The position numbers were made by a program, and so were the translations under genes. Of a stretch of 64,000 nt of DNA, positions 3,835 through 53,720 are shown one piece after another. The notes beneath the pieces are model-generated. The model saw only the letters and a list, made by a program, of their open reading frames with translations, was not told where the DNA came from and searched no databases. Origin of the DNA: Actinomyces bowdenii (lineage in GTDB: Bacteria; Actinomycetota; Actinomycetes; Actinomycetales; Actinomycetaceae); assembly GCF_017592395.1 (NCBI RefSeq), contig NZ_JAGFOU010000004.1, positions 62,001 to 126,000 on the forward strand, read 5' to 3'. How positions within the stretch are numbered: position 1 is the stretch's first letter; each line of letters starts with the position of its first letter.

Positions 3835-3838
3835 GGCG

Positions 3839-5417: not shown

Positions 5418-5442
5418 GACGTTGCTCACTGCTGTGCGGGCC

Positions 5443-5703
5443 TTACAGGGAGGCGACGCGCTTGGCGAGCTTGGACTTGCGGTTGGCGGCCTGGTTCTTG
5501 TGAATGACTCCCTTGGAGACGGCCTTGTCCAGCTTGCGGGAGGCGGCCTTGAGGTGCTCGAGAGCGGCGTCCTTGTCTCCGGCCTCAACGGCCTCGCGCA
5601 CGCGGCGCACGTAGGTCTTGAGCTCGGACTTGACGGACTTGTTGCGCAGGCGGGCCTTCTCGTTGGTCTTGATGCGCTTGATCTGGGACTTGATGTTCGC
5701 CAC
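5443..5703 (-). CDS. rpsT: 30S ribosomal protein S20
   Basis: Small-subunit protein S20, 86 aa, which binds 16S rRNA early in assembly. The sequence starts [20 protein letters not shown] and is rich in Lys/Arg helices, as expected, with a conserved [10 protein letters not shown] segment and C-terminal [10 protein letters not shown]. The start is GTG at 5703, with a purine-rich GAGAAAG upstream; a longer upstream reading frame exists but is not S20 sequence. Neighbouring holA across a converging gene is the usual actinobacterial arrangement. A strong terminator follows. Confidence 0.97.
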
Positions 5704-5845
5704 GGTGAAGCTTTCTCGTGTCTGGTTCGGTCGATGGCCGGAAGAGAGGGTTCGCGCCGCGGGCCGACATGGAGGTGGTGGGGCACCTGGCTGGCCCGGT
5801 CGCCGGACCCCGCAGCCGGCCAGGCCAGAGGTCCAGGGGGTGACT

Positions 5846-6553
5846 CTACCAGGCCGGATTCTCAAGGGCTTCGTGCGCACGGGCACCGGGCGCGTGAACT
5901 TGCTCGCCTGCGCCGAGCTCCACCTGGCTCTCCGCTCGCTCGATGAGCCTGGGGTCGTGGGTGGCCACGAGGATCGCCGCGGAGGTCCGGGCCCATTCGT
6001 CCAGGGCTCCGATGACCAGCGCGGCCAGCTCCTCATCGGCCCCGGCGGTGGGCTCATCGAGGATGACCAGGCGGGGGCGCTCCATCAGCAGTGTGCGAGC
6101 CAGGGCCACCCGCATCCGCTCCCCGCCGCTGAGCAGGCCCGTGCGGGTCCGGGACAGGTGGGTGAGCCTCGCGGCGGCCAGGGCATCGGCGATCCGTGCT
6201 CCGCGCTGGCGCCGGGGGAGCCCGAGCGCCCACGCGGCGTGGCGCAGTGCGGCGACGGGGGTCCAGGAGTCCTCCAGAAGGAGGTCCTGGGGCTGGAGGG
6301 CGATCGTGGTGCGGTGCGCCCGGCGGATGTCGCGCGGGCTCATACGTCCGGAGTGCTGGCCATCGATGGTCACGGTCCCGGTGAAATCGAGGTCGTGCAG
6401 GCCCAGGCACCACGCGGTGGTGGTCTTGCCGGAGCCGTTGGGACCGCTGAGGGCCGTGACGGTGCCCTCCCTCAGGGACAGGTCGAGCCCGTCGACGAGC
6501 AGGCGCCCGCCCCTGGAGATGGTCAGGCCTGTGGCGGTGAGCGTGTCAGTCAT
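5846..6553 (-). CDS. ABC transporter ATP-binding protein
   Basis: Cytoplasmic ATPase of an ABC transporter, 235 aa. Walker A is GPNGSGKTT (about 38-46), the signature is [11 protein letters not shown] (about 140-150), Walker B is [12 protein letters not shown], and the switch His is in ATHDPRL. It overlaps the upstream permease gene by 8 bp, so the pair forms one unit. Size and pairing with a large permease resemble MacB-type or bacteriocin-associated exporters, but the substrate cannot be deduced. The 3' end lies about 140 bp from rpsT, transcribed in the same direction. Confidence 0.88.
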
Positions 6554-8531
6554 GGTGGGCCTGCCTCCTGCGGCGGGGATGGGTGGGCCGAGCGGTGGTG
6601 TGGCGCGCTCCTACGACAGCGGCCGCGGTGAGGGCCAGGGCGCACGCAGCCTGGGTGAGGGCCAGTTCAGCGCTGGGCTGGGTCAGAAGCGGCCAGGCGA
6701 GGATGAGCACGGGGATCGTGATGAGGATCGCGGTCAAGAGGTGACCGGCCAGCGGCCGCTGGCCCAGGAGGCGCTCGATCTCTCGCCTGCGCCGCCTGGC
6801 CTGCGCCCAGGCCCGTGCCGCGAGCCCGGCGCTGGCCACGGCACCGGTGCCTGCGGTCAGCAGGATGAGTGCGTGGAGGACTGCTGTGCGCGTGGTCTGC
6901 TCCCTGAGGGCCGTGTTGCCGGTGCCGACGGTGTCGAAGCGCGCCACGAGGTCCTCCACATGGTGCTCGCGCAGGTTCTCGCGCAGGGAGACGAGGCTGT
7001 GGCCGGTGAGGGCTGCGGCCCCCTGGGTGATGGCGGACAGGTAGTCGTCCGGGGCGAAGTAGCCGTCGGGGACCACGGCGATGAGGCAATCATCGGTGCG
7101 GGTGCCCTCGGTGCTGAGGAAGAAGCTGACGGCGGGGAGGTTCTCCGGCAGGAGCGCGCTGACCTCCTCCAGGTCGTGAGCGGTGACGGTGATCGTGCTC
7201 GCGCTCGCCCCGTGCAGGGCATTGAAGCGGGCCTGCTCGACGAGCCCCTGGGTCAGGGCCTCGTCCTGGCTGGCCAGCGATTGGGGCCGGTAGAGGGCTA
7301 CCCGCTGCTCGGCGACCTCGGGCAGGCCGTAGTGGGCTGCGGCCGTGTTGTTGAGGTAGAGTGTGGGCGGCCCACTGCCGTCCTCGTTGGAGCCGTTGGG
7401 GATCGCCCAGGCCAGGACGAGGTGCCCCTCCTCCTGGGCCTGGGCGATGAAGGACGCGATCTGCGGCGTCTTGGCATTCAAGGTGGGTTCGCTGACCGAC
7501 CAGATGCTCAGGGTAGTGGCTGCAGGGAGGGACTGCTGGGCCTGGGCCTGGTTGCGCAGTGCTTGCGCCTGGAGGACATCGATGATGAGGCTGGTGCTCG
7601 CGGTGGAGAAGGACCAGGTCATGGTCAGCACGAGTGCGTAGGTCAGCAGAGCGATCCCGTGGCGTGGATGCGCCTCAGTGCCGGGGCGCCGCCGGGTCCC
7701 AGCGGCGAGCACGGCCCATCCTGCCAATGTGCCGGTCAGGGTTGCGGCGAGGGTCAGGGCCGTGCAGCAGGCGATGAGCTCGGCGCTCATGCGGTGGATG
7801 CTCAGCACGGCGGAGCCGTAGATGTCGCAGGCCACCAGCAGGGCCAGTAGGGCCAGGGGCAGCAGGAGCCACCGGCATGCTGTCAGGAGGCTGTTCTTGA
7901 GGAGGTGGAGGGCCAGGCGGGCGTGGGAGCGGCCCAGCAGTCGGGCGCTTCTGTAGGAGGAGGACTGGGTGGTGGTGGCAAGGGCCAGGACGAGCGCCAG
8001 GACCATCTGGGCTATCAGCAGGCTCACGCCGATCTCGGAGTTGATGGCGGTGGACAGGGCAAGGCCCGGTGCCAGGGTCCCTGATCCGCTGATCCGATCA
8101 CTCCACCGGTCGGCGGCGTGGTTGAGGAACTGAGCGGTGCCCTGCCGGGAGCCGATGGCGTACCACCCGCCCAGGGCATCATCCTGGACGGTGCTGCCAC
8201 CGTAGGCGATGGGCTCCGGCAGGAGCAGGGGGGTCAGTGGTGGACGGATGTAGTCGTCGGCCTCGTAACCGAGGATCTCGACGTTGGTGGTCGAGAAGGA
8301 CTCATCGATGGTGTCTGCGAAGGCTGTGATGTGGCGTACCTGGGCGACCTCGACGTCGGCCTGCTCGCCGATCTGACGAAGCTCATCCGGGTCGACGCCG
8401 GTACTGCTGATGATGACGTAGCCGCTCGCCTCGGCCGGGAACAAGGACAGGAGCGTCTGGGGGACAAGCAGGATGGTCGCCAGGCAAAGTGCGAGGTTGA
8501 GGGCCCAGGTGGCTCTGAGAAAATTCTTCAT
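6546..8531 (-). CDS. ABC transporter permease, large extracytoplasmic domains
   Basis: Integral membrane protein of 661 aa partnered with the overlapping ATPase. One membrane segment lies near the N-terminus (residues 8-30), followed by an extracytoplasmic domain of about 140 residues, then a cluster of about four segments. A second soluble region and three C-terminal segments follow. This layout resembles FtsX/MacB-like or bacteriocin-associated integral membrane proteins; I cannot separate these. ATG 8531 was chosen because the 16 codons upstream (from 8579) fall inside a palindromic repeat unrelated to the protein. No strong ribosome binding site is visible. Confidence 0.75.
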   Translation of the reverse strand: MKNFLRATWALNLALCLATILLVPQTLLSLFPAEASGYVIISSTGVDPDELRQIGEQADVEVAQVRHITAFADTIDESFSTTNVEILGYEADDYIRPPLTPLLLPEPIAYGGSTVQDDALGGWYAIGSRQGTAQFLNHAADRWSDRISGSGTLAPGLALSTAINSEIGVSLLIAQMVLALVLALATTTQSSSYRSARLLGRSHARLALHLLKNSLLTACRWLLLPLALLALLVACDIYGSAVLSIHRMSAELIACCTALTLAATLTGTLAGWAVLAAGTRRRPGTEAHPRHGIALLTYALVLTMTWSFSTASTSLIIDVLQAQALRNQAQAQQSLPAATTLSIWSVSEPTLNAKTPQIASFIAQAQEEGHLVLAWAIPNGSNEDGSGPPTLYLNNTAAAHYGLPEVAEQRVALYRPQSLASQDEALTQGLVEQARFNALHGASASTITVTAHDLEEVSALLPENLPAVSFFLSTEGTRTDDCLIAVVPDGYFAPDDYLSAITQGAAALTGHSLVSLRENLREHHVEDLVARFDTVGTGNTALREQTTRTAVLHALILLTAGTGAVASAGLAARAWAQARRRRREIERLLGQRPLAGHLLTAILITIPVLILAWPLLTQPSAELALTQAACALALTAAAVVGARHTTARPTHPRRRRQAHHD

Positions 8532-8558
8532 GGGAGTGTCGTGCAGTAGGCGGATCCG

Positions 8559-8638
8559 CCCACTTTCGACAATTTGCATGAGATCGTACTTCTCCAGGCC
8601 TGGAAAAGGCCGATCTCATGCAAATTGTCGAAAGTGGG
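8559..8638. repeat. Long palindromic element, copy A
   Basis: A perfect 28-bp inverted repeat (8559-8586 with 8611-8638) surrounds a 24-bp centre. Arms contain TTTCGACAATTTGCATGAGA. The element begins one base beyond the stop of the PemK-like gene and lies 27 bp upstream of the permease start. It shares its arms with a second copy at 10951-11020. It is AT-richer than its surroundings. It could serve as a terminator or mRNA stabiliser, or be a small mobile element. Confidence 0.9.
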
Positions 8639-8639
8639 G

Positions 8640-9377
8640 TCAGGAGTGGTGGGCGCGCAGGGCCGCGACGACGGCCTCGAAGGTGCCGCGCGGCATGGTG
8701 GCGCCCTCGCGGCGCACCGCGCCCGGCTCTACGCTCAGCAGCCGGTCCAGGCGCACCTCGCTGGGGCGGCCCCGCGAGTCCCACGGCCCCGAGCCGACGT
8801 CGTGCCAGTGGCGGCCCCAACGCGCCTCCTGGGCGGCGTCGCGGTCGTGGTCCTTCGATGTCATCTGGGCCACCACCAGCAGGCCCCGGGCGCGGGCGAG
8901 CACGAGCACCGGGCGGTCCTTGCCCCGGGCGGCATCCTCCTCATAGGGCACCCAGGTCCACACGACCTCGCCGGGGTCGGCATCCCCGTCGGGATCGGGG
9001 CTGTAGGTGAAGTCGGGCAGGCCCAGGGCCGCGACGTCGTAGACCGCCACCCCGCGATGCGGCGCGCTGCCGCCGCCCCGAGCGCCGTCGTCGGTCCCGC
9101 GGCCGGGGTGGTCGGCCCCACGGGACGAGGCGCCGCTGGGCTTGGGGTGCGAGCTGTCCCTGGAGGCGGCGCCCTTGCGCTGGGCACCGGGGGAGCTCGG
9201 TGAGGCGGGCCTCGCCGTCCCCCCGCCTCCTGGGCCTGGGGCGGTCTCGGCACTGGGGCGATCGGCGGGGCCGTCGGTGGCCCCCGTCGGCTTCGTCGCG
9301 GTTGTCAGCGCCTCGGAGGCGGCATCGGCGGCGGCGCGCCCGAGCACGCGCAGGATCCGGTTGAGCAGACTGGCCAT
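8640..9377 (-). CDS. PemK/MazF-like protein with long N-terminal extension
   Basis: A 245-aa protein whose C-terminal half resembles the PemK/MazF endoribonuclease fold: GEVVWTWVPYEEDAARGKDRPVLVLAR followed by a QMTSKDHD stretch and PSEVRLDRLLSV. These correspond to the strand-loop pattern of MazF-family toxins (the conserved RP and the later T/S-D region). The first 110 residues are Ala/Gly/Pro/Ser-rich and appear disordered. No antitoxin-sized gene lies beside it, so a classical toxin-antitoxin pair is not supported. It may be a solitary actinobacterial PemK-like protein. Family assignment moderate; activity unknown. Confidence 0.65.
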   Translation of the reverse strand: MASLLNRILRVLGRAAADAASEALTTATKPTGATDGPADRPSAETAPGPGGGGTARPASPSSPGAQRKGAASRDSSHPKPSGASSRGADHPGRGTDDGARGGGSAPHRGVAVYDVAALGLPDFTYSPDPDGDADPGEVVWTWVPYEEDAARGKDRPVLVLARARGLLVVAQMTSKDHDRDAAQEARWGRHWHDVGSGPWDSRGRPSEVRLDRLLSVEPGAVRREGATMPRGTFEAVVAALRAHHS

Positions 9378-9406
9378 GGGGCCACCCTAGCCGCAGCCGC
9401 ATCGAC

Positions 9407-9442
9407 GGCGCCCCGCAGGCCCGGCCGGGCCTGCGGAGCGCC
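9407..9442 (-). terminator. Candidate hairpin terminator after the sugar porter
   Basis: A 9-bp GC stem (9413-9421 with 9428-9436) extended by an outer 5-bp stem (9407-9411 with 9438-9442) lies 40 bp beyond the sugar porter stop. No T-run follows, so termination is inferred from position only. Confidence 0.4.
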
Positions 9443-9481
9443 GATCAGCTTCGATGAGCGCCTCGGAGGCGGCGACAGCGG

Positions 9482-10864
9482 CTAGTGCCCGCTCCCCAGG
9501 CCCAGCCTCTCCTCCATCTCCTCCAGGGGCACGCCCTTGGTCTCGGGCATCGTGGTCAGCACCCAGATGAGTTGGCCGACCATGCACACCAGGAACAGGG
9601 TGAAGGCCCATCCGCCGCCCAGGCCCCCGGCGATGGCCGGGAAGCTCCAGGAGATGACCGCGGCGAAGAACCAGTGGGTGAAGGAGCCCAGGGCCTGGCC
9701 GCGGGCGCGGATGCGGCTGGGGAAGATCTCGGAGATGAACACCCAGATCACCGAGCCCTGGCCGAAGGCGTGAGCGGCGATGAACACCAGCAGGCTCAGC
9801 AGCACCAGGGTGGAGGCGCCGCCGCTGAAGCTCTCGCCCGACATGAAGAACACCACCGCGATCGATCCCAGGGAGATGAGGTAGCCGATGGAGCCCACGA
9901 TCATCAGTTTACGGCGGCCGAACTTGTCGATGACGGTCAGTGCTGTCATCGTGGCGATGAGGTTCATGGCCCCGACCGCGATGGAGGACAGGAATGCGGT
10001 ATCCGAGCCCGCCCCCGCCATGCGGAAGATGTCCGGGGCGTAGTACATGATGGCGTTGATCCCCGAGAGCTGGTTGAAGGCCGCGATCGCGAAGGCCAGG
10101 AGGATGACCCGGTAGTTGCGGGGCACGAAGAACGGGGCCTTGCCCATGGAGGCGTCCTGCTTCAGCGCCTGCTCGATCTCCCCGATCTCGAAGTCGGCCT
10201 CCTGGCGCGAGGAGGTCAGGCGCTCGACGATGGAGCGGGCCAGCTCGGTGCGGCCCTTGCCGTAGAGCCAGCGGGGGCTCTCGGGGATGGTCAGGGCCAG
10301 AAGGAGGAAGGCCATGGCGGGGACCGCCTCGATGCCGAACATCCAGCGCCAGGCCACCTCGTAGTCGAAGACCTTGGCCAGCACGTAGTTGGACAGGTAG
10401 GCCAGCAGGATGCCGAGCACCACGTTGAACTGCACGAGCCCCACCAGGCGTCCCCGCACCCGGGCGGGGGAGATCTCAGCGGTGTAGATCGGTGCCACCA
10501 CGGAGGCCCCGCCCACGCCGATGCCGCCGATGAGGCGGAAGAACATGAACAGGTACCAGTCGGAGACCAGGGCCGAGCCCAGGGCTGAGACCGTGTAGAG
10601 CAGGCCGATGGTCAGCAGGATGTTCTTGCGGCCCCAGATGTCCGCGGGGCGCCCCGCGGACATGGCGCCGATGATGGTTCCGATGAGGGCGGTGGCCACC
10701 GTGAACCCGAGACCGAACTCGCTCAGGTCGAAGACCGAGCGCAGGTTGTTGGTGGTCCCGGAGATGACGGCTGTGTCGAATCCGAAGAGGAGTCCTCCCA
10801 GCGCGGCCACGATGGCGCTGCGGATGACGAGTGGGCTGATCTTGCTGCTGGTGGCTGACGGCAT
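9482..10864 (-). CDS. Sugar porter family MFS transporter
   Basis: A 460-aa, 12-segment major facilitator of the sugar porter family, probably a sugar:proton symporter in the cytoplasmic membrane. Signatures include GGLLFGFDTAVISGT at the first helix, GRKNIL in loop 2-3, RLIGGIGVGGASVVAPIYTAE in helix 4, PESPRWL before helix 7, QLSGINAIMYYAP in helix 7, and PETKG at the C-terminus. All are diagnostic and full length. Start ATG 10864 has AAGGAAG upstream. No catabolic genes sit nearby, so the substrate is unknown. The upstream region contains palindromic element copy B. Confidence 0.93.
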   Translation of the reverse strand: MPSATSSKISPLVIRSAIVAALGGLLFGFDTAVISGTTNNLRSVFDLSEFGLGFTVATALIGTIIGAMSAGRPADIWGRKNILLTIGLLYTVSALGSALVSDWYLFMFFRLIGGIGVGGASVVAPIYTAEISPARVRGRLVGLVQFNVVLGILLAYLSNYVLAKVFDYEVAWRWMFGIEAVPAMAFLLLALTIPESPRWLYGKGRTELARSIVERLTSSRQEADFEIGEIEQALKQDASMGKAPFFVPRNYRVILLAFAIAAFNQLSGINAIMYYAPDIFRMAGAGSDTAFLSSIAVGAMNLIATMTALTVIDKFGRRKLMIVGSIGYLISLGSIAVVFFMSGESFSGGASTLVLLSLLVFIAAHAFGQGSVIWVFISEIFPSRIRARGQALGSFTHWFFAAVISWSFPAIAGGLGGGWAFTLFLVCMVGQLIWVLTTMPETKGVPLEEMEERLGLGSGH

Positions 10865-10950
10865 CGTCGGCTTCCTTCATCGCAGGATGGGCTGCCGAGC
10901 GCAACCCGAGGTGATCGCACACTACCAGGGCAGCGCCACCGCCTCCCCAC

Positions 10951-11020
10951 TTTCGACAATTTGCATGAGATCGTACTTCTCCAGGCCCGGAGAAGTACGA
11001 TCTCATGCAAATTGTCGAAA
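10951..11020. repeat. Long palindromic element, copy B
   Basis: A perfect 32-bp inverted repeat (10951-10982 with 10989-11020) with a 6-bp loop. Its arms share TTTCGACAATTTGCATGAGA and following bases with copy A at 8559-8638. It begins 8 bp beyond the trpA stop and 86 bp upstream of the sugar porter start. The position just after a minus-strand stop is the same as in copy A, which suggests a 3'-end role. The exact identity also fits a miniature mobile element. Confidence 0.9.
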
Positions 11021-11028
11021 AGAAGGGG

Positions 11029-11895
11029 TTAGGGGGCGCGGGTGGCCGCCTTCATCGCCGCCACGAAGCCGATGAGCTCGGCGCGCAGCGCCTCCAGGGC
11101 GGCCGCATGGGCCGGCGAGCCCTCCGCCTCCGTCTGCGCCGCCTGGGCCAGGGCGGGGACGTGGGCCTCGATGATCTGGACCGTCGCCGAGCCCGAGATC
11201 GCCCCATCTGCCCCCGCCGCGATGGCCTCGGCCACCTGCTCGGGCCGGGAGATCCCGAAGCCGAGCATCACCGGTGCCGCCCCGGCCCCCCGCAGCCGCT
11301 CCACCGCCTGGGCCAGGCCCACCGTGGAGGAGGCGTGCTCGGTGCCGGTGACCCCCACCCGCGACACGGCGTAGATGTAGCCGCGCGAGGCCCCCGCCAC
11401 CGCATCCAGGGTGTGCTCGGCGGCCGAGGGCGGGGCGATGTAGACCGCATCGACCCCGGCATCGGCCGCAGCCGCGGAGAAGGCCGCGGACTCGCGCACC
11501 GGCACATCGGGCAGCAGCACCGAGTCGATGCCCACCGCCGCGCACCGGGCGTAGAAGGCCTCCAGCCCCAGCGCGAAGGGGACATTGCCGTAGATGAGCA
11601 TGCCGATGGGCAGCTCCGGGTGGCGGGAGCGCACCCGGCCCACCACCTCCAGGCAGGCATCGAAGCCCACACCCGCCTCCAGGGCTCGGATATGGGCCCG
11701 CTGGATGGTGGGACCGTCGGCCACCGGGTCGGAGAAGGGCACGCCCAGCTCCAGGGCATCGGCGCCCCCCTCGATGAGGGCCTCGATGATGGCCTCACTG
11801 GCCGACGCCGTGGGGTCGCCCACCATGACGAAGGGCACGAAGGCCCCCTCACCGCGCTCGTCCAGGGAGCGGAACATCTGGGGGTAGCGGCTCAT
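11029..11895 (-). CDS. trpA: Tryptophan synthase alpha chain
   Basis: Cleaves indole-3-glycerol phosphate to indole and glyceraldehyde 3-phosphate, in complex with the beta chain; 288 aa. Family motifs are GAFVPFVMVGDP at the N-terminus, LELGVPFSDPVADGP (catalytic acid region), SVLLPDVPVRES, and GFGISRPEQV. ATG 11895 follows the trpCB stop by one base, and AAGGAG within the end of trpCB serves as ribosome binding site. It is the last gene of the trp operon; a long palindrome follows. Confidence 0.97.
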   Translation of the reverse strand: MSRYPQMFRSLDERGEGAFVPFVMVGDPTASASEAIIEALIEGGADALELGVPFSDPVADGPTIQRAHIRALEAGVGFDACLEVVGRVRSRHPELPIGMLIYGNVPFALGLEAFYARCAAVGIDSVLLPDVPVRESAAFSAAAADAGVDAVYIAPPSAAEHTLDAVAGASRGYIYAVSRVGVTGTEHASSTVGLAQAVERLRGAGAAPVMLGFGISRPEQVAEAIAAGADGAISGSATVQIIEAHVPALAQAAQTEAEGSPAHAAALEALRAELIGFVAAMKAATRAP

Positions 11896-11896
11896 C

Positions 11897-14364
<2,468 letters not shown>

Positions 14365-14368
<4 letters not shown>

Positions 14369-15594
14369 GAGGCCTGCCCCTCCTGATCCTGCGACGGCTG
14401 CTCCCCGCCCGGCCCGCCGGCCGGCGCGCCGGCCGGCGCGGTGGCAGGCTCCCGGTCCCGCCCGGGCACGGGCTCGGGGGCCAGCTCGGAGGCCAGGTCG
14501 GAGGCCTTGGTCATGGACTCCAGGTGGGCGGCCACGGCGCCCGAGGCGATCTGCTCGCGGGCCATGGCGGCGCCGTCGGCCAGGCTGTCGGCGGGGCCGG
14601 CGAGGTAGAGCAGGGCGCCGGCGTTGACGGCGATGGCCTCCCGGTGGGCGGGGAGGCCCTGGCCGGAGATCGCCTCGCGCAGCAGCCGGGCGTTGTCGGC
14701 GGGCTCGCCGCCGCGCAGGTCGTCGAGCTCGCAGCGGCTGGCGCCCAACTCCTCGGGGGTGACCTCGTAGGCCTTGACCCCGCGGGGGGTGGCCTCGCGC
14801 ACCAGGGTGGGGCCGTGCACGGCGATCTCGTCCAGGCCCGAGCCGTGCACCACCAGGGCGCGCTTGCGCCCCAGCTGCACCATGGACTGGGCGATCATGT
14901 CCAGCATGGCCGGGTCCCACACGCCCATGAGCTGGTAGGTCAGGTGGGCGGGGTTGATGAGGGGGCCCAGCACGTTGAAGATCGTGGGGGTGGCCAGGGC
15001 CCGGCGCACCGGTGCCACGTGGCGCATGGCCGGGTGGTAGGCCTGGGCGAACAGGAAGGTGAAGTGGTCGCGGGCCAGCAGCTCCACGGCCACCTCCGGG
15101 GCCACGTCCAGGGGCAGGCCCAGCTCGGCGACGACGTCGGCGGCCCCCGTGCGCGAGGACACGGCCCGGTTGCCGTGCTTGGCCACCGAGACCCCCATGG
15201 AGGCGGCCACGAGTCCCGCGCCGGTGGAGATGTTGATGGTGCCGGCCCCGTCCCCGCCGGTGCCCACGACGTCGACCAGGGGGAAGGTGACGGCGGGGAA
15301 GGCGCGGGCGGCGGCGCGGAAGGCGGTGGCCGCCCCGCTGATCTCCTGGGCCTCCTCGCCCCGGGCGTGCAGGCCCGCGAGCAGGGCGGCGGTCTGGGCC
15401 TCGGACAGGTCCCCGGCGCCCAGGGCCGCGAAGACGATGGAGGCCTCCTCATGGCTCAGGCGCCCTCCCTGGACCACCCGGCGCACCAGGTCGTGGGCGT
15501 CCCGGGCGCTGGGCAGCGGCTCCTCCTGGCCGCCCCGGCCCCCGGGGGCCGGGGCGGTGGCCTCGAGGGCGCTGCGATCGGCGTCAGTGGTCAT
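14365..15594 (-). CDS. trpD: Anthranilate phosphoribosyltransferase
   Basis: Transfers phosphoribosyl from PRPP to anthranilate, the second step of Trp synthesis; 409 aa. The PRPP-binding loop [24 protein letters not shown] and [10 protein letters not shown] are diagnostic. Compared with the usual 340 residues it has extra N-terminal (about 25) and C-terminal (about 45) low-complexity extensions. It overlaps trpG (4 bp, ATGA) and trpCB (4 bp), so translation is coupled. Cytoplasmic. Confidence 0.96.
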
Positions 15595-16385
15595 CGTGCT
15601 GTCTCCTTGGTGGTCCGGGGGCTCGGGGCGGGGCTGTGCGGCGGGGGCCCGCCCGGCCGGGCCGCCCGGGCGGCGGCCAGATCGGCGGTCAGGGCCCGCA
15701 GCAGGGCCGGGCCCTGGGGGGTGAGGATCGACTCGGGGTGGAACTGCAGGCCCACGGCCGGGGCGCTGCGGTGGCGGGCCGCCATGACGATGCCGGCCCC
15801 GCCCTCACCGGTGCCGCCCGTGGTGCGGGCCAGGCAGATGAGGTCCTCCGGCAGCGCCCGGGTGCCCAGGGAGTGGTAGCGGGCCACATCGAGCGGGGCG
15901 CCGTCCAGCACCGCCAGGGCGGCGTCGGCGCGCCCCTGGGCGGTGACCTTCACCCGGTCGCTGCGCCCGTGGACCGGGCCCACCGGGGCGATGGTGCCGC
16001 CGCAGGCCTCCACCATGGCCTGGAATCCCAGGCAGATGCCCAGCATGGGGATGGCGCGACCCAGGCCGGCCTCCACCAGCTCCATGAGGCAGCCCGAGGT
16101 GCGCGGGTGACCCGGCCCGGGGGACAGGCACAGCACCGGGCGCTTCCCGGCCGCCAGCTCGGCGGCGGTGGGCTCCAGGGCCGCCAGCACCCGCTCGGCG
16201 CTGACATGGTTGCGGTAGACCTCGATGTCGGCCCCCAGGGAGGCGAACTGGTCGACGAGGTTGTAGACGAAGGAGTCCCGGTTGTCCAGCAGGACGACGC
16301 GGGCGGGGCCTCCTGGTTTGGCCCCTGCCCCGCCGCTCCCGCCCGTGCCGCCTGCCGTGGCGGCGGCTCGTGCCATGGCGCTCAC
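15591..16385 (-). CDS. trpG: Anthranilate synthase glutamine amidotransferase
   Basis: Class I glutamine amidotransferase subunit supplying ammonia to TrpE; 264 aa. Seen: VVLLDNRDSFVYNLVDQF, the nucleophile loop MLGICLGFQAM with its Cys, and the catalytic His/Glu in FHPES. The start is GTG 16385 (GTGA overlap with the trpE stop) with AGGAGG 8 bp upstream; ATG 16376 is an alternative. N- and C-terminal Gly/Pro-rich tails exceed the usual length of about 195 aa. Confidence 0.94.
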   Translation of the reverse strand: MSAMARAAATAGGTGGSGGAGAKPGGPARVVLLDNRDSFVYNLVDQFASLGADIEVYRNHVSAERVLAALEPTAAELAAGKRPVLCLSPGPGHPRTSGCLMELVEAGLGRAIPMLGICLGFQAMVEACGGTIAPVGPVHGRSDRVKVTAQGRADAALAVLDGAPLDVARYHSLGTRALPEDLICLARTTGGTGEGGAGIVMAARHRSAPAVGLQFHPESILTPQGPALLRALTADLAAARAARPGGPPPHSPAPSPRTTKETAR

Positions 16386-18151
16386 CTCTGCGTCCTCCTC
16401 TCGGTCCCGGGGGCTCCCGCCCCGCCGTCGCTGCCGGCCCCGCCGGTGCTGCCCGCATCGACGACGGCGCTGATCCCCAGGGCCCGGCCCTGGGCGGCGG
16501 CCACGGCCTCCAGGACGGCGCGGGCCTTGTGGACCGTCTCGGCGGCCTCCTTGGCGGGCACGGAGTCGGCCACCACCCCGGCCCCGGCCTGGACCAGTGC
16601 CTGCCCGCCGGCGACGAAGGCCGAGCGGATGACGATGCAGGTGTCCAGCTCGCCGTCGCCCCGGATGTAGCCCACCGAGCCCCCGTAGGAGCCGCGGCGC
16701 GCACCCTCGGCGGTGCGGATGAGCTCGGCGGCCCGCAGCTTGGGGGCGCCGGTGAGCGTGCCCATGGTCATCGAGGCCCGGAAGGCGTCCAGGGCGTCGA
16801 GGTCCTCGGCCAGCTGCCCGCTGACCTCGGAGACCAGGTGCATGACCCGGGAGTAGCGGTCCACGCGCATGAGGTCGCGCACCTGGCGCGTGCCGGGGCG
16901 GCTGACCCGGGCGACGTCGTTGCGGGCCAGGTCCACCAGCATGACGTGCTCGGCCACCTCCTTGGCGTCCGTGCGCAGCTCGAGCTCCAGGCGGGTGTCG
17001 CGCTCGTGGTCGATGCCGCCGTCGGGCGCCAGTCCGCGCGGGTTGGTGCCGGCGATGGGGCGGATGGCCACCTGCCCGGTGCGCGCCGAGTGCAGCAGCG
17101 CGGATTCCGGGGAGGCCCCGAAGAGCTCGAAGTCCGGGGCGGCCAGGTAGAACATGTAGGGGCTGGGGTTGGACCGGCGCAGGACCCGGTAGGCGGCCAG
17201 GGCGTCGGGGCAGGCGATGGTGAAGCCGCGCGAGGGCACGACCTGGTAGACGTCCCCGGCGGCGATATGCCCCTTCATGGTCTCCACGACCCGCTCGAAG
17301 CCGGCGTCGGAGACCGTGGGGGTGGCCTGCAGCGGCCCCGCCGCGGGGGCCGGTCCGCCGGCGGGCGCCCCGATCGCGCCGGCGGTGCCAGCGGTGGGTT
17401 CAGCGGCGGGTTCAGTGGTAGTGCCGGCGGCATTGATGGCGGTGGCCAGTTCCTCCATGCGCGCCTCCAGGCCCGCGGCGTCCACCGAGGCCCCCACGAG
17501 GGTGGCCGTGGCCGTGGGGTGGTCCACCACCAGGATGATGCGCGCGTCGTAGAAGAGGTAGTCGGGGCAGGTGTTGGCGCCCTGGGGGACCTCGGGCAGG
17601 GCCTCGAAGGTGGCCAGGTAGTCGAAGGCGAAGGCCCCGGCCTCCAGGGGCAGGTGGGGGTGGTCGACCTCGGCGGCGGCCAGGAGGCGCAGGGGCTCGA
17701 TGGTCGACAGGGCGGTGAGGCGGGCCCGCTCCTCGGTGGCGGGGTCGTCGTCGGCGCTGGTGGGCAGGCTCAGGGCCAGGCGGCCGGCCCGGCGCTCGAC
17801 GACGTGCCCGCCCAGCTGGGACTCCAGGCGCTCGATGGCGGCCAGGCCGTCGGGGCTGGGACCCGGGGCCGCGGCGGGTGCGCCGTGCTCGGGCAGGGCC
17901 TCGACGACGACCTGGGGGCCCCAGCAGGTCAGGCGCGCGCAGGCCTCCAGGACGGCGATGGTGGTGCGCGAGGCCTTGGTGGTGATGTCGGCGCTCTCCA
18001 GCAGGACGCAGTCCAGGGGGCGCGGGCGCTGCCCGTGCGGGCCCTGGTCGGTGCGCAGCACCCCCTCGTGGGCGAGGTGCTGGAGGAGGGCGCCGCCGTC
18101 GGCGTGGTAGGCCACGGTCCTGGTGACCGGCGTCGGTGGCGTGGGGGTCAT
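16382..18151 (-). CDS. trpE: Anthranilate synthase component I
   Basis: Chorismate-using subunit of anthranilate synthase, the committed step of Trp synthesis; 589 aa. The N-terminal LLES motif (CVLLESAD, about 48-55) is the known Trp feedback-binding element. The C-terminal catalytic half carries FGASPESALLH, RPIAGTNPRG, DLARNDVARV and VGYIRGDGELDTCI. A 40-residue Ala/Gly/Pro insert separates the two halves, and the C-terminal tail is Gly-rich. It is the first structural gene of trpEGD(CB)A and is preceded by a Trp-codon leader peptide, so attenuation is likely on top of feedback inhibition. Confidence 0.96.
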   Translation of the reverse strand: MTPTPPTPVTRTVAYHADGGALLQHLAHEGVLRTDQGPHGQRPRPLDCVLLESADITTKASRTTIAVLEACARLTCWGPQVVVEALPEHGAPAAAPGPSPDGLAAIERLESQLGGHVVERRAGRLALSLPTSADDDPATEERARLTALSTIEPLRLLAAAEVDHPHLPLEAGAFAFDYLATFEALPEVPQGANTCPDYLFYDARIILVVDHPTATATLVGASVDAAGLEARMEELATAINAAGTTTEPAAEPTAGTAGAIGAPAGGPAPAAGPLQATPTVSDAGFERVVETMKGHIAAGDVYQVVPSRGFTIACPDALAAYRVLRRSNPSPYMFYLAAPDFELFGASPESALLHSARTGQVAIRPIAGTNPRGLAPDGGIDHERDTRLELELRTDAKEVAEHVMLVDLARNDVARVSRPGTRQVRDLMRVDRYSRVMHLVSEVSGQLAEDLDALDAFRASMTMGTLTGAPKLRAAELIRTAEGARRGSYGGSVGYIRGDGELDTCIVIRSAFVAGGQALVQAGAGVVADSVPAKEAAETVHKARAVLEAVAAAQGRALGISAVVDAGSTGGAGSDGGAGAPGTERRTQR

Positions 18152-18203
18152 GGGGCCTCTTTCCTGAAGTGTCTCCTGGGATGTCCTTGACGGCGGGAGT
18201 CAG

Positions 18204-18283
18204 GCGGGCCGTTCACGCATGGTGCCGAGGTGGCCCGCGGTGAGCGAGCCGGTGCGTCCTAGCGCGGCGATGAGGCGGCTCGC
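18204..18283 (-). promoter_or_regulatory. trp attenuator stems between leader peptide and trpE
   Basis: Two alternative stems are visible on the minus strand. GCGAGCC (18283-18277, inside the leader coding region just after the Trp codons) pairs with GGCTCGC (18250-18244, after the leader stop). GCGGGCC (18238-18232) pairs with GGCCCGC (18210-18204). The layout fits ribosome-position-dependent folding. The distal stem has no T-run, so its action could be through Rho-independent termination of actinobacterial type or by affecting trpE translation. Assignment is inferred from position and pairing. Confidence 0.55.
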
Positions 18284-18324
18284 CCTGAGGGGAGCCACCA
18301 CCAGATGGTGTGCCGCGTGGTCAT
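18259..18324 (-). CDS. trpL: trp operon leader peptide
   Basis: A 21-residue reading frame, MTTRHTIWWWLPSGRAASSP followed by R and a TAG stop, ending about 107 bp before trpE. Three consecutive TGG codons at residues 8-10 are the classic sensor of charged tRNA-Trp. No ribosome binding site is visible. A TACAGT -10-like hexamer at 18336-18331 ends 6 bp before the ATG, so the transcript may be leaderless; a poor -35 candidate (TTGTGC, 18361-18356) lies 19 bp upstream. The gene is too short for ordinary gene finders. The triple Trp codon directly upstream of trpE makes the call strong. Confidence 0.85.
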   Translation of the reverse strand: MTTRHTIWWWLPSGRAASSPR

Positions 18325-18397
18325 GGGGCCACTGTAGACCGCGGTGGGCCGAGCGGCACAATCGTCCGCATCGCGGGACCTGCCCGTGGCCTGCTCG

Positions 18398-18485
18398 CAT
18401 TCCCGCCTGCGCGGGGAGGGCATGTAAGAGGCGCCGTTCGCCCGGTGCCGCGTCTCCACATGCCCGCCTGCGCGGGGAGGGCATC
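18398..18485. CRISPR. Two-repeat orphan unit with type I-E-like spacing
   Basis: Two copies of a 26-27-bp sequence (18398-18424 and 18459-18485, one mismatch in the first 26) share a CCCGCCTGCGCGGGG core and lie exactly 61 bp apart. That period equals a 29-bp repeat plus a 32-bp spacer, the usual type I-E geometry. The GC hairpin flanked by a short tail is also I-E-like. There are no further copies and no cas genes. It may be a relic array or an unrelated duplicated hairpin. Confidence 0.45.
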
Positions 18486-18667
18486 GGGGCTGCGCCGGCG
18501 GGGCGGGCCTGGAGGATCCTGGCCCGCGGCTGCCGGTGGCCACTGCGCGCCGGTGAAGGCGTCATGACAACTGCTCCGGATATCATGCGGTCGCAGCGAC
18601 CCCTGAATAGCACGTCGGAGTGCGGTCATGAGAATGGTCGCGGGACTTAAGGAAGCCGGATAGCGAC

Positions 18668-19663
18668 ATGACGAATCTCGACCCCCACCCCACCGCCTCT
18701 GTGCTCGGGCCCGGGCAGCCGTGCACCGACATCGAGGTGCTCGAGCCCCGGCCGGTGCCGCTGGGCGGGCTGCGCGCCATGACCGTATACCGGACCCTGC
18801 CGCAGCGGCGGCGATCGCTCGTGGGGGCGTGGTGCTTCCTGGACCATTACGGCCCCGATGACGTCTCGGCGACCGGCGGCATGCAGGTCCCGCGCCACCC
18901 GCACACGGGGCTCGCCACCGTCTCGTGGCTCTTCACCGGGAGGATCGATCATCTCGACTCCGGCGGCAATGCCGCCTCGGTGAGCCCCGGGGAGCTGAAT
19001 CTCATGATCGCCGGCCGTGGCATCACCCACCAGGAGTTCAGCGCGCCCGAGACCACCTCGCTGCATGGCGTGCAGCTGTGGTTTGCGCTGCCCGAGGAGA
19101 CCCGGCACAGCGAGAACCACTTCGCCCACTACGCCCCCGAGTCCGTGATCGGCGAGGGGGTCACCGCCCGGGTGTTCATCGGCGAGCTGCTCGGATCGGC
19201 CTCCCCGGTGCGCACGCGCACACCCGGCCTGCTGGGCGCCGAGCTATTGATCGACCCGGGCGCGACCGTCAGACTCGAGGTGCGTCCGGATTTCGAGCAT
19301 GCGGTGCTGGCCGAGGACGCTGATGTGGCGGTGAATGGGGTGGTGACCCCGCGCCGCTGCCTGGCCTACGCACCCGTTGGATCGGACACGCTCGAGATCG
19401 CCGCGGGTCGGGGCGGAGCACGGGTGATCCTGCTCGGGGGAGTGCCGCTGGGCGAGCAGATCGTCATGTGGTGGAACTTCATCGGCCGCACCCACGACGA
19501 GATCGTCGAGTACCGCCGCCGCTACCAGGCCGAGATGGGATTCGAGGCCGCGCACCCCGACGACGCCGGAAAGCCCGCGATCTTCGGCCGGTTCCCGCCG
19601 GGGCAGCCGGAGCCGCTTCCCGCTCCTACGATGCCCACCTCCCGGCTCAAGCCGCGCAAGTAG
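18668..19663 (+). CDS. Pirin family protein
   Basis: A 331-aa bicupin of the pirin family. The N-terminal cupin contains the metal-binding His set: PRHPHTGLATVSWLFTGRI and later GITHQEFS. The C-terminal cupin has the pirin tail pattern ending in EIVEYRRRYQ. Pirins bind iron and some are quercetin dioxygenases or redox-sensitive transcription cofactors; which applies here is unknown. It is the only gene on the plus strand in this stretch, opening away from the trp operon. The region downstream is a CRISPR locus. Confidence 0.9.
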   Translation: MTNLDPHPTASVLGPGQPCTDIEVLEPRPVPLGGLRAMTVYRTLPQRRRSLVGAWCFLDHYGPDDVSATGGMQVPRHPHTGLATVSWLFTGRIDHLDSGGNAASVSPGELNLMIAGRGITHQEFSAPETTSLHGVQLWFALPEETRHSENHFAHYAPESVIGEGVTARVFIGELLGSASPVRTRTPGLLGAELLIDPGATVRLEVRPDFEHAVLAEDADVAVNGVVTPRRCLAYAPVGSDTLEIAAGRGGARVILLGGVPLGEQIVMWWNFIGRTHDEIVEYRRRYQAEMGFEAAHPDDAGKPAIFGRFPPGQPEPLPAPTMPTSRLKPRK

Positions 19664-19909
19664 TCCATGAGGAAGAACTTTAGTAGCGCGGTGGCACCGC
19701 GGTAGCACTGGCGTCCTGAGGCCTTTGCGCGGGGCATGTGGTCTTCTCTGGCAGGCCGGCCCGGCGGGATTCCGGTGGGCCCGACTCGGGGGCTGAATCG
19801 CCCGGGCTGTGACGCCGATGAATGAGCCTTTCCCGGGTGATGGCGGGAGGTCCCGGGAGGGGCTCTGGAGGGAGTGCGAGGGCACTAGCGGAGGAGCTTA
19901 TGGGACTTG
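19664..19909. other. Intergenic stretch between pirin and CRISPR leader
   Basis: About 250 bp without a supportable gene. It contains a GC palindrome around 19686-19702 (CGCGGTGGCACCGCG), a candidate terminator hairpin for the pirin gene. Otherwise nothing recognisable. The duplicated CRISPR leader begins at its right edge. Confidence 0.5.
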
Positions 19910-20139
19910 AGTCCTGGGTATCGGATGTCTGATGTTGGTGGGGGAGGGGGGCTTTTCCGCATGGTCTCGTTGGATTCCGGGTGACGGGGGCTCTGGAGGG
20001 GTGTCGCTGGCGCTGTGGTGCTGACCTGCGCCGATGTGGTACAAAGGGGTCTGTGCCGGGGCGGTCTGGAGGGTGCCGACGGGTCGCCTGCGCTGCGCCT
20101 CGCATCACTGCTGGTCACAGGGGGTGATTCGAGGGGTGG
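19910..20139 (+). other. CRISPR locus 1 leader (duplicated sequence)
   Basis: The 230 bp immediately before the first repeat match 53302-53531, upstream of locus 2, without gaps and with six differences by my comparison (about 97% identity). Such conservation right up to the first repeat is what a CRISPR leader would show. The left edge begins in a short palindrome, GGACTTGAGTCC (19904-19915). The leader's 3' part is partly repeated again at 20828-20889. Confidence 0.8.
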
Positions 20140-20660
20140 GTCAGAAGGCACCCCGCGCCATAAGGTGCATTGAGACGTAGCCGCCCTTTGTGATGATGAT
20201 GGAGCTGTCGGTCAGAAGGCACCCCGCGCCATAAGGTGCATTGAGACTGAGCTCAAGCTCATCCTTCGTCAGTTGGAGTACCAAGTCAGAAGGCACCCCG
20301 CGCCATAAGGTGCATTGAGACGTCAACCCCAGGCTGTCGAGAATCTTCTCGATCGTCAGAAGGCACCCCGCGCCATAAGGTGCATTGAGACACCATCGAT
20401 GATGTCTGAGTAGCATCCCTCACCGAGTCAGAAGGCACCCCGCGCCATAAGGTGCATTGAGACCTCTATTCCCCGCCCTCCGTGCGGGCAACCGTTAGTC
20501 AGAAGGCACCCCGCGCCATAAGGTGCATTGAGACGATCATGACCCATCCTTTCTCTAAGAGCCTGCCCCGGTCAGAAGGCACCCCGCGCCATAAGGTGCA
20601 TTGAGACGCGCAGGCATACAGGGTTTCAACTGCCGTACTCGGGTCAGAAGGCACCCCGCG
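20140..20660 (+). CRISPR. CRISPR array 1, 7 full repeats, 7 spacers, no cas genes nearby
   Basis: Seven identical 37-bp repeats start at 20140, 20211, 20285, 20355, 20427, 20498 and 20571. Each begins GTCAGAAGGCACCCCGCG and ends GGTGCATTGAGAC. An 18-bp half repeat at 20643-20660 closes the array. Spacers are 34, 37, 33, 35, 34, 36 and 35 bp and all differ. Identical repeats near the leader and the truncated last one at the right indicate plus-strand orientation. The ATTGAGAC end resembles the ATTGAAAC handle of class 1 systems (types I-B, I-C, III), but the type is not proven. Repeats can fold (GCACC with GGTGC). No cas gene occurs in the window, so processing must be in trans if it occurs. 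Confidence 0.97.
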
Positions 20661-20693
20661 TGGGTCGGTTCTCTGCCGGGTCGGTCGTTTTCT

Positions 20694-20761
20694 GCTGGGT
20701 GACTTGCATTCTGCCCGTTGAGATCCGCCTATCTGGGCCAGCGGGATGCGGGTGACCCAGC
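20694..20761. repeat. Palindromic intergenic element, copy 1
   Basis: Imperfect inverted repeat: GCTGGGTGACTTGCATTCTG on the left, and GGGCCAGCGGGATGCGGGTG running on into ACCCAGC on the right. Related copies lie at 20941-21008, 53721-53788 and 58059-58126. Confidence 0.75.
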
Positions 20762-20940
20762 GAGATGCGGGAGACCCCGCGGCATAGCGTGTGCGCCCCT
20801 CATAGCCGGAGTGACCGGGAGGGCCTCGACGGGTCTCTAGCAGTGCGCCTCGCATCACTGCTGGTCACAGGGGGTGGTTCGAGGGGTGGGTCAGGAGGTG
20901 CCCCGCGTGGGTCGGTTCTCTGCCGGGTTGGTCGTTTTCT

Positions 20941-21008
20941 GCTGGGTGACTTGCGTTCTGCCCGTTGAGATCTGCCTATCTGGGTCAGCGGGATGCGGGT
21001 GACCCAGC
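20941..21008. repeat. Palindromic intergenic element, copy 2
   Basis: Nearly identical to copy 1 at 20694-20761, from which it arose by the 247-bp tandem duplication of the CRISPR trailer. Confidence 0.75.
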
Positions 21009-21112
21009 GAGATGCGGGAGACCCCGCGGCATAGCGTGTGCGCCCCTCATAGCCGGAGTGACCGGGAGGGGCGAGAGGCGGGCGCGCGGCGGCGCCTCGG
21101 AACTGCCCTCGT

Positions 21113-21661
21113 CTACGAGCGCATGTGCTCAGAAGGGGCCCAGGGAGCCTCAGAGCCGGAGGGGGAATGCTCACCGGCCGCCCGCGCGCCCGCCCGTATC
21201 GGGCGGCTCTGCTTGAGGCGGCGGTGCTGGAGGACCACCGAGGTGGCGAAGGCCGCGAGAATCGCCACCGAGGCGATCCTGCCGGTGGGGCTGGAGAACC
21301 AGGCGCCCAGCACCGCCATGCCCACGGTCGTGTAGATCGTGGCCCAGGCCACCGCTCCCACGGCGGTGGCCGGGATGTAATGCCGCAGGGGCATGCGCGC
21401 CACCCCGGCCGAGAGCTGGATGAAGCTCTGGAGCCCCACGGTCAGAAAGGACATGGGGATGGCCAGCACGCCCCAGCGAGCCGTCCAGGCCTGGGCCGTG
21501 GCGTACAGGGGATGATCGAGCATCGCCGCCCACCTGCTGCGGGCCGTGCCCGCCGCAACGCCGCGCCCGATCCAGTAGAACATGTTCGACCGCGCCATGC
21601 CGCCGCACCAGAAGAACAGGAAGACCCAGGTGTAGGGCAGCTCGTTGATCCGGTCCATCAC
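21113..21661 (-). CDS. Short DedA-like membrane protein
   Basis: A 182-aa membrane protein with the C-terminal signature of the DedA/VTT family: a Gly-Val-Leu-Ala-Ile-Pro segment followed by a helix containing SAGVARMPLRHYIPATAVGA and W. About four membrane segments are visible, then a basic, Ser-rich tail. It is shorter than typical DedA proteins and lacks the first re-entrant loop, so it may be a divergent or truncated member. Known DedA members take part in lipid handling and membrane homeostasis. The stop lies close to the CRISPR trailer. Confidence 0.7.
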   Translation of the reverse strand: MMDRINELPYTWVFLFFWCGGMARSNMFYWIGRGVAAGTARSRWAAMLDHPLYATAQAWTARWGVLAIPMSFLTVGLQSFIQLSAGVARMPLRHYIPATAVGAVAWATIYTTVGMAVLGAWFSSPTGRIASVAILAAFATSVVLQHRRLKQSRPIRAGARAAGEHSPSGSEAPWAPSEHMRS

Positions 21662-53301: not shown

Positions 53302-53531
53302 AGTCCTGGATATCGGATGTCTGATGTTGGTGGGGGAGGGGGACTTTTCCGCATGGTCTCGTTGGATTCCGGGTGACGGGGGCTCCGGAGGGGTGTCGCT
53401 GGCGCTGTGGTGCTGACCTGCGTGGATGTGGTACAAAGGGGTCTGTGCCGGGGCGGTCTGGAGGGTGCCGACGGGTCGCCTGCGCTGCGCCTCGCATCAC
53501 TGCTGGTCACAGGGGGTGGTTCGAGGGGTGG
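53302..53531 (+). other. CRISPR locus 2 leader (duplicate of locus 1 leader)
   Basis: 230 bp matching 19910-20139 with six substitutions and no gaps by my alignment. It leads directly into a CRISPR repeat, as in locus 1. The left edge is again an AGTCCTGG-type half palindrome. Confidence 0.8.
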
Positions 53532-53641
53532 GTCAGAAGGCACCCCGCGCCATAAGGTGCATTGAGACAGATGCTCGCGCTGGCGGCGACAACATTAACC
53601 ACGGGTCAGAAGGCACCCCGCGCCATCAGGTGCATGAAGAC
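53532..53641 (+). CRISPR. CRISPR array 2, two repeats and one spacer, plus a degenerate tail
   Basis: Repeat 1 (53532-53568) is identical to the array 1 repeat. Spacer 53569-53604 is 36 bp. Repeat 2 (53605-53641) has three mismatches, as expected for the last repeat. A 28-bp stretch (53642-53669) is followed by a decayed repeat start (ATCAGAAGGTGCCCGCGC, 53671-53688), so an extra, short spacer position may be present. That stretch contains a tRNA T-arm-like sequence. No cas genes nearby. Confidence 0.9.
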
Positions 53642-53720
53642 TCGCAGGTTCGAATCCTTTCCCCGCTACGATCAGAAGGTGCCCGCGCACAGCTGCTCTT
53701 CGCTGGGCTTGCCGTTTTCT

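What the first reader, a model, noticed from the sequence alone, without database searches (positions are those of the whole stretch)
19910..20660. Orphan CRISPR array with duplicated 230-bp leader
Array 1 has seven near-perfect 37-bp repeats and a leader, but no cas genes exist in the window. An almost identical leader (six differences in 230 bp) precedes a second array 33 kb away. Fixed distance, no gaps and the intact first repeat at both sites suggest both loci were recently active or were copied. Either Cas proteins act in trans or the loci are relics. The repeat's ATTGAGAC end suggests a class 1 system.
Basis: partly seen in the sequence, partly recalled or inferred. Interest (0 to 1): 0.7.

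Follow-up and report, generated by a model that had tools for sequence, protein, structure and literature searches.

The report
Satellite CRISPR arrays served in trans
The two CRISPR memory banks in this stretch of an Actinomyces genome have no cas genes close by, but they are outlying copies belonging to a complete RNA-targeting CRISPR system elsewhere in the same genome that uses a reverse transcriptase; one related species carries 19 such copies.

Summary
Observation confirmed. Array 1 (20140-20660) has seven identical 37-nt repeats plus a truncated eighth; array 2 (53532-53690) has one perfect and one decayed repeat. Their 230-nt leaders differ at 6 positions, gapless. The arrays are orphan only within the window. 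The same genome (Actinomyces, contig C7) encodes a full type III-D system: Cas10 (GGDD), fused Cas7/Cas5 subunits, Csx19, Cas6, CARF-HEPN and CorA ancillaries, Cas2 and a reverse transcriptase-Cas1 fusion, flanked by two more arrays with nearly the same repeat and leader. A related species (G003) has all four arrays at the same four places yet shares none of the spacers, so the memory turned over after the split. The four leaders in the window's genome resemble each other more than their positional counterparts, which fits homogenisation. Dispersed leader-arrays recur in the genus: 19 arrays in G032 and 12 leader-repeat junctions in G024, each with one RT-Cas1. Related spacers are 65% antisense to coding sequence, matching the published type III average. 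How arrays spread is unresolved. A new member of a known kind, with unusually wide dispersal.

The parts
19910..20139 (+). Leader of array 1 (230 nt, one of four copies in the genome)
   Evidence: Gapless alignment of four leaders, 221-225 of 230 identical in pairs; homology ends abruptly upstream
20140..20607 (+). Array 1: seven identical 37-nt repeats GTCAGAAGGCACCCCGCGCCATAAGGTGCATTGAGAC, spacers 33-37 nt
   Evidence: predicted repeat hairpin GCGCC-AUAA-GGUGC followed by an 8-nt AUUGAGAC handle (z -1.5, 16 of 200 shuffles fold as well)
20643..20660 (+). Truncated terminal repeat of array 1
   Evidence: family D2; followed by a terminator-like stem-loop with a T-run at 20663-20686 (2 found, 0.5 expected)
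20805..20907 (+). Remnant of a further array: last part of a leader (84% over 94 nt) and a truncated repeat, inside a 247-bp tandem duplication of the trailer
   Evidence: (C34:82805-82907, 83%)
53302..53531 (+). Leader of array 2
   Evidence: 224/230 identical to leader 1
53532..53641 (+). Array 2: one perfect repeat, one 36-nt spacer, one decayed repeat (3 mismatches)
53642..53690 (+). Leader-distal spacer matching the 3' end of a host tRNA-Met gene (27/28), then a degenerate partial repeat

Best explanation
Both loci are satellite CRISPR arrays of one type III-D CRISPR-Cas system whose genes lie on another contig (C7). The RT-Cas1/Cas2 adaptation complex recognises the shared leader and first repeat and adds spacers at the leader end of all four arrays. 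Cas6 cuts the transcripts at the repeat hairpin, leaving an 8-nt handle. The Cas10/Cas7/Cas5 complex uses the crRNAs to find complementary phage or plasmid mRNA and makes cyclic oligoadenylate that activates the CARF-HEPN and CorA proteins. SHOWN: near-identical repeat and leader in four arrays, a complete gene set with intact motifs, synteny of all four arrays with G003, no shared spacers, leader homogenisation in the window's genome. INFERRED: acquisition and processing in trans, cOA signalling, and RNA as a spacer source.
For: Same repeat (one position different) at C7 on both sides of the RT-Cas1 gene with a 96-98% identical leader. RT-Cas1: Pfam RVT_1 and Cas_Cas1, aligned to the solved Cas6-RT-Cas1 7kft/7kfu with FADD and the Cas1 GLEG and GI-H segments. 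Cas2: PF09827, E 4e-16. Cas10 with GGDD, the one PDB sequence matched is 8s9t, E 8e-29. Csx19, III-D Cas7 and Cas5 models, Cas10 and Cas10d models. Cas6, CARF-HEPN, CorA-like. In G003 the flanks of arrays 1 and 2 are 87-95% identical at the same places, yet 0 of 23 G000 spacers recur among 24 distinct G003 spacers, even at 10 mismatches or fewer (six terminal spacers were delimited by hand). Joint positional orthology of the leaders is rejected, p-AU 0.0004.
Against: No RNA data. No protospacer found: 4 array loci against 50,697 phage records gave none, and 22-nt cores of 6 of the window's 9 spacers gave none in viral contigs. Array 2 has only one perfect repeat. For pair C7a alone positional orthology is not rejected (p-AU 0.22) and for pair W2 only marginally (0.0496). 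G003 leaders differ from each other by 10-24 positions, no less than orthologs do (15-21), so homogenisation is clear only in the window's genome. Some subunit calls rest on PADLOC models: the Pfam Cas10 palm and the NCBIfam Csx10 model score below their cut-offs.
Confidence: 0.87

Rival explanations
1. The window's arrays are relics: copied long ago, no longer transcribed or extended, drifting.
For: Small size (7+1 and 2 repeats), a decayed second repeat in array 2 and a dead leader remnant at 20805; no protospacers found.
Against: Seven identical repeats in array 1, an intact first repeat and a 230-nt leader kept at both sites for as long as G000 and G003 have been apart; spacer content differs at the same sites.
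Confidence: 0.1
2. The arrays are served by the genome's type I-E system on contig C3, or by the second type III-D effector set on C52, rather than by the C7 locus.
For: The genome has a I-E locus (Cse1, Cas7, Cas5, Cas6e-type and Cas1 by Pfam) with 43- and 151-repeat arrays, and a second Cas10/Cas7-5/Cas7-7/Csx19 set on C52.
Against: The I-E repeat is 28 nt and unrelated; the fetched 20-kb C52 stretch has no array of three or more repeats in the scan. The C52 effector could still use the crRNAs as a second consumer; that is not excluded.
Confidence: 0.06
3. The leader-array unit spreads as a non-autonomous mobile element (carried by an IS/MITE-like activity or by the RT-Cas1 itself), and the window's copies are two insertions of it.
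For: 19 arrays with a common leader of about 330 nt in G032 and 12 perfect leader-repeat junctions in G024 (10 of them read as arrays), each genome with one RT-Cas1 match. G033 has 7 perfect junctions and only a C-terminal RT-Cas1 match, residues 485-676. Of 7 G033 arrays read away from its cas locus, 1 has long flank homology with a fetched G032 array locus. In G029 both window sites lack arrays.
Against: No target-site duplication or common 3' end was found; upstream homology runs from about 330 to 1000 nt and varies; array 2 lies at the end of an inverted block, which also fits ordinary recombination. One further G033/G032 pair (L266/L197) shares a 679-bp stretch, on different sides of the array. 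This concerns origin and does not compete with service in trans.
Confidence: 0.3

Closest known systems
Type III-D CRISPR-Cas with RT-Cas1 (Cas10d, Csx10/Cas5, Csx19, Cas7 fusions)
   Same: Gene content, RT-Cas1 and Cas2, 37-nt repeats ending in an 8-nt ATTGAGAC handle, antisense spacer bias in related arrays
   Different: Arrays scattered over the chromosome; a second effector copy on another contig without adaptation genes in the fetched stretch
Remote arrays with identical repeats served by a distant Cas locus (PMC12814883; abstract and search passages seen)
   Different: Here the same four sites are kept in two species with complete spacer replacement, and leaders look homogenised
Methanocaldococcus jannaschii multi-array genome (18 CRISPR loci, PMC3890593, passage seen; its long shared leader elements are recalled, not checked)
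   Same: Many arrays over one genome with a common leader
   Different: Archaeon; no RT-Cas1 (recalled)
Pyrobaculum arrays (PMC3396285, passages seen)
   Same: Reports repeat mixing between arrays of a genome and suggests recombination or copying of a leader-proximal repeat from another array, and one promoter-like element nearly invariant in 37 arrays of six species
   Different: Archaeal; a short promoter element rather than a 230-nt leader; no RT-Cas1 mentioned in the passages seen
Marinomonas and Arthrospira RT-Cas1 type III-B systems (PMC5513706, abstract and passages seen)
   Same: RT-Cas1; Arthrospira RT-linked spacers mostly without traceable source
   Different: Type III-B effectors; Cas6 is part of the Marinomonas fusion (recalled) but a separate gene here

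Membership tests
CRISPR array (not a chance tandem repeat) | Three or more near-identical 23-50 nt repeats with unique, regular spacers and a leader | tested here: met
   Array 1: 7 identical repeats, spacers 33-37 nt all different. Array 2 alone has only 2 repeats; it qualifies through the shared repeat and leader
Type III-D CRISPR-Cas | Cas10 with cyclase GGDD, closest to III-D Cas10 | tested here: met
   PADLOC Cas10 and Cas10d models; the one PDB sequence matched is 8s9t with GGDD aligned. Pfam Cas10 palm is below its cut-off. That 8s9t is a III-D complex is recalled
Type III-D CRISPR-Cas | Cas5 (Csx10-like) and Cas7 fusions, Csx19 | tested here: met
   Csx19 E 2e-54, Cas7_IIId and Cas5_IIId models, TIGR03986 above its cut-off. 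Csx10 (TIGR02674) is below its NCBIfam cut-off, so the Cas5 call rests on PADLOC models
RT-Cas1 adaptation module | Reverse transcriptase fused to Cas1 with both active sites, plus Cas2 | tested here: met
   RVT_1 and Cas_Cas1 in one frame, FADD and Cas1 motif segments against 7kft, Cas2 PF09827 E 4e-16 (the frame sent was the wrong one and gave nothing)
RT-Cas1 adaptation module | Spacers acquired from RNA | not testable with these tools
   Antisense bias is compatible with selection after DNA acquisition; no experiment
Active satellite array in trans | Leader and first repeat kept, spacer turnover | tested here: met
   (comparison with one related species at the same sites)
Active satellite array in trans | Transcription and crRNA processing | not testable with these tools
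   No RNA data
Relic array | Degenerate repeats and leader | tested here: not met
   Array 1: perfect repeats and intact leader. Array 2 is partly degenerate (3 mismatches in its second repeat)
Transposable element (leader-array unit) | Defined ends with target-site duplication | tested here: inconclusive
   No common 3' end, variable 5' extent; clean empty/occupied site pairs not obtained

The most novel reading that the evidence does not exclude
In Actinomyces the leader plus first repeat of an RT-Cas1 type III-D system is a self-spreading, non-autonomous chromosomal element: one RT-Cas1 both seeds new arrays at distant sites and keeps up to 19 of them in step, with leader copies homogenised by gene conversion, so that the memory is spread over the chromosome.
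Probability: 0.15. Interest if true: 0.8.

Novelty: new member of a known kind. Interest (0 to 1): 0.45.

Why it matters
Arrays without neighbouring cas genes are often filed as orphans or relics. Here two such arrays can be assigned to a specific distant RT-Cas1 type III-D system, and positional conservation with complete spacer replacement gives a sequence-only sign of service in trans. The genus also offers a natural series (four arrays here, 19 in G032) for studying how CRISPR arrays multiply and whether RT-Cas1 has a part in it.

Tried and rejected
Protospacers: arrays W1, C7b, G003 C7a and G029-1 gave no match among 50,697 phage records (E up to 0.05). Array W1 against the 32 genomes of the genus that had no match gave hits in 4 of 32, which were at arrays as far as I read them; this revealed the G032 arrays. 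22-nt cores of 6 of the window's 9 spacers gave 0 exact matches in viral contigs.

Gene-start idea: by eye many antisense spacers look like Shine-Dalgarno plus ATG. On 845 collapsed spacers the motif occurs 39 times antisense and 15 times same-strand (p 0.0015; later batch alone 10 against 3 of 208, p 0.09; I-E 1 against 4 of 191). Host background per strand is 1.3%. The antisense excess looks real, but a specific preference for gene starts over the rest of a gene is not shown, so I dropped it as a claim. In 1639 spacers of the more distant loci, most of which matched only the Cas1 part (orientation taken as fetched), the motif was 7 antisense against 12 same.

Strand bias of the related spacers: 550 of 845 antisense by codon score (65%), I-E 107 of 191, simulated antisense coding 36-mers 1737 of 2000. 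It matches the 65% given for type III in PMC8482600 (passages seen), so it is ordinary. The window's own 9 spacers split 5:4, uninformative. The set comes from fetched loci only, other genera included; arrays whose detected repeat was not 36-38 nt were left out, and 376 duplicates and 10 off-length pieces were dropped. An earlier version included some pieces with repeat remnants and gave 560 of 860.

Mobile-element signature: no common trailer and no target-site duplication identified. Literature: in the listings (lists cut at 10-15 titles; open-licence PMC only) I saw no paper on homogenised 230-nt leaders, on array spread by RT-Cas1 or on gene-start spacers. The nearest, PMC3396285, I opened for passages: it discusses repeat mixing between arrays.

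Failed scripts: one search stopped after printing its table and was completed by 49; the IQ-TREE step of 87 failed and was rerun; 98 failed and was rerun.

Full report
WHAT IS THERE. Array 1 has seven identical 37-nt repeats from 20140 to 20607, with spacers of 33-37 nt and a truncated terminal repeat ending at 20660. Array 2, 33.4 kb downstream in the same orientation, has one perfect repeat (53532-53568), one repeat with three mismatches (53605-53641) and a degenerate remnant. The 230 nt in front of each first repeat match at 224 of 230 positions without a gap, and the similarity stops abruptly upstream. The region behind array 1 also holds a 247-bp tandem duplication of the trailer with the end of a third leader and a truncated repeat.

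WHERE THE CAS GENES ARE. The window is contig C34 of a 3.1-Mb genome in 54 contigs. The repeat occurs 23 times in the genome at up to 3 mismatches: 7 in array 1, 2 in array 2, and 5 and 9 in two arrays on contig C7. Between the two C7 arrays lie RT-Cas1 (19738 to about 21765) and Cas2 (PF09827). Beside them, on the same strand, lie Cas10, a Cas7-Cas5 fusion, a double Cas7, Csx19, a TIGR03986 Cas7-like protein, a pentapeptide-repeat protein, a CARF-HEPN protein and a CorA-like protein, and on the opposite strand Cas6. RT-Cas1 carries RVT_1 and Cas_Cas1 and aligns to the solved Cas6-RT-Cas1 (7kft) across both, with FADD and the Cas1 motif segments. Cas10 keeps GGDD, and the one PDB sequence it matches is the Cas10 of 8s9t. 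Some subunit calls rest on PADLOC models, since the Pfam Cas10 palm and the NCBIfam Csx10 model stay below their cut-offs. Together this is a complete type III-D system. Cas1, RAMP and Cas6 searches of the whole genome gave no match on the window's contig.

ARE THE WINDOW ARRAYS LIVE? In G003, a complete genome of another species of the genus, four arrays sit at the same four places: two 33.37 kb apart and two flanking RT-Cas1. The flanks of the window's arrays are 87-95% identical there. None of the 23 spacers of the window's genome recurs among 24 distinct G003 spacers, nor among 22 of G029, even allowing 10 mismatches (six terminal spacers delimited by hand). Sites are kept, content is replaced. 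That is expected if acquisition continued after the split, including at the two sites without cas genes. It does not prove activity today. Array 2 shows a single spacer laid down in front of its decayed repeat.

LEADER HOMOGENISATION. Leaders within the window's genome differ by 5-9 of 230 positions; positional counterparts in G003 differ by 15-21. A tree with all positional pairs enforced is rejected (p-AU 0.0004). Singly, W1 (0.009), C7b (0.03) and W2 (0.0496) are rejected and C7a is not (0.22). G003's own leaders differ by 10-24, so the effect is clear on one side only. Bootstrap support within the unconstrained tree is low at several nodes.

DISPERSAL IN THE GENUS. RT-Cas1 is found in 28 of 213 genomes of the family at E 1e-60 or better, 16 of them in the genus; several of these matches are partial, split or carry a stop. 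In G032, which has one RT-Cas1 match, I found 19 arrays with 130 repeats in all: 17 scattered plus 2 beside RT-Cas1. They have a leader of about 330 nt in common and an identical first repeat. A leader-repeat junction pattern (up to 2 mismatches) gave a match in 20 of 49 genomes. Perfect junctions number 18 in G032, 12 in G024, 7 in G033, 4 each in G023, G009, G004 and G020, and 3 in G034; control counts are 0-3 per genome. The pattern gives 0 in G000, G003 and G029, whose repeat type it misses, so counts are lower bounds for arrays of this family, while not every junction was read as an array (in G024, 10 of 12 were). G033 has only a C-terminal RT-Cas1 match. Of the 7 G033 arrays read away from its cas locus, 1 shares long flanks with a G032 array locus. 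Both window sites lack arrays in G029; the 2-kb block next to array 2 is inverted relative to G029, G012 and G033. I found no transposition signature.

SPACERS. No protospacer was found for the window's spacers with the searches made. Across 845 distinct spacers of related arrays, 550 read as antisense to coding sequence and 295 as sense (65%), in two batches (64% and 68%); 191 type I-E spacers of the window's genome gave 56%. Simulated antisense coding pieces give 87%, so roughly 70% of the spacers are truly antisense (inference). The average given for type III in PMC8482600 is 65% (passages seen), so this is normal type III behaviour and says nothing by itself about RNA capture. One oddity: the leader-distal spacer of array 2 is the 3' end of a host tRNA-Met gene with one mismatch, in tRNA sense; that it is the initiator tRNA is my reading of its sequence. 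It ends like the gene, not like a CCA-tailed tRNA.

HOW IT MOST LIKELY WORKS. RT-Cas1/Cas2 inserts spacers at the leader end of all four arrays. Each transcript is cut by Cas6 at the repeat hairpin (GCGCC-AUAA-GGUGC; not unusually stable against shuffles), leaving AUUGAGAC. Cas10 complexes then scan mRNA and signal through cyclic oligoadenylate to the CARF-HEPN and CorA proteins. The anatomy is shown; the traffic in trans is inferred. A second Cas10/Cas7-5/Cas7-7/Csx19 set on C52 could use the same guides.

KNOWN OR NEW. Distant arrays with identical repeats have been reported to acquire spacers at comparable rates (PMC12814883, abstract and passages seen). That paper gives a maximum of 23 arrays for one V-A locus, and M. 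jannaschii has 18 CRISPR loci (PMC3890593, passage seen). Repeat mixing between arrays of a genome is described for Pyrobaculum (PMC3396285, passages seen). So the finding is a new member of a known kind. The wide dispersal of leader-arrays around a single RT-Cas1 in Actinomyces is the part a specialist would want to follow.

Noticed in passing
window 53642-53669: The leader-distal spacer of array 2 matches the 3' end of a host tRNA-Met gene (C6:19724-19751) at 27 of 28 bases, in tRNA sense; possibly a host-derived spacer.
   Followed up: partly
window 51294-53260: A 2-kb block with ABC-transporter genes and an HTH regulator is inverted relative to G029, G012 and G033; array 2 lies at its end.
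   Followed up: partly
window 18394-21220: A 2.8-kb block with a pirin-family gene and array 1 is absent from G029, where the matched flanks lie about 40 bp apart.
   Followed up: partly
window 20686-20781 (also C9:78007); window 53880-54038 (also C1:87555); window 58040-58150: The trailers behind the arrays contain stretches repeated elsewhere in the genome; the first resembles by eye the 19-bp tandem repeats at 58040-58150 (CCAGCGAAACGCGGGTCAC).
   Followed up: no
L075 (C52:8001-28000) 8485-14799: Second type III-D effector set (Cas10, Cas7-5, Cas7-7, Csx19) with no array of three or more repeats in the fetched stretch; transposase-like frames nearby (by eye, no family search).
   Followed up: partly
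L012 (C3) 310-19391: Type I-E locus (Cse1, Cas7, Cas5, Cas6e-type, Cas1 by Pfam) with arrays of 43 and 151 repeats in the same genome.
   Followed up: partly
L099, L100 (G029): G029 keeps three arrays of this type with Cas10-like frames next to two of them (Cas10 palm just below the Pfam cut-off) but has no RT-Cas1 match at E 1e-60; arrays and effector may have outlived the adaptation module.
   Followed up: partly
L188, L194, L145 (G032); in part L189 and L193: In three G032 arrays the terminal repeat is followed by a roughly 180-bp element with inverted ends (TTTCTCACCAG...CTGGTGAGAAAGG) and then a piece of the repeat's end, a MITE-like insertion in the terminal repeat.
   Followed up: no
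C7 array b (L011, minus strand): Repeat variants mark array chronology: in array C7b the seven leader-proximal repeats carry one variant while the two distal ones carry the variant of array C7a.
   Followed up: no
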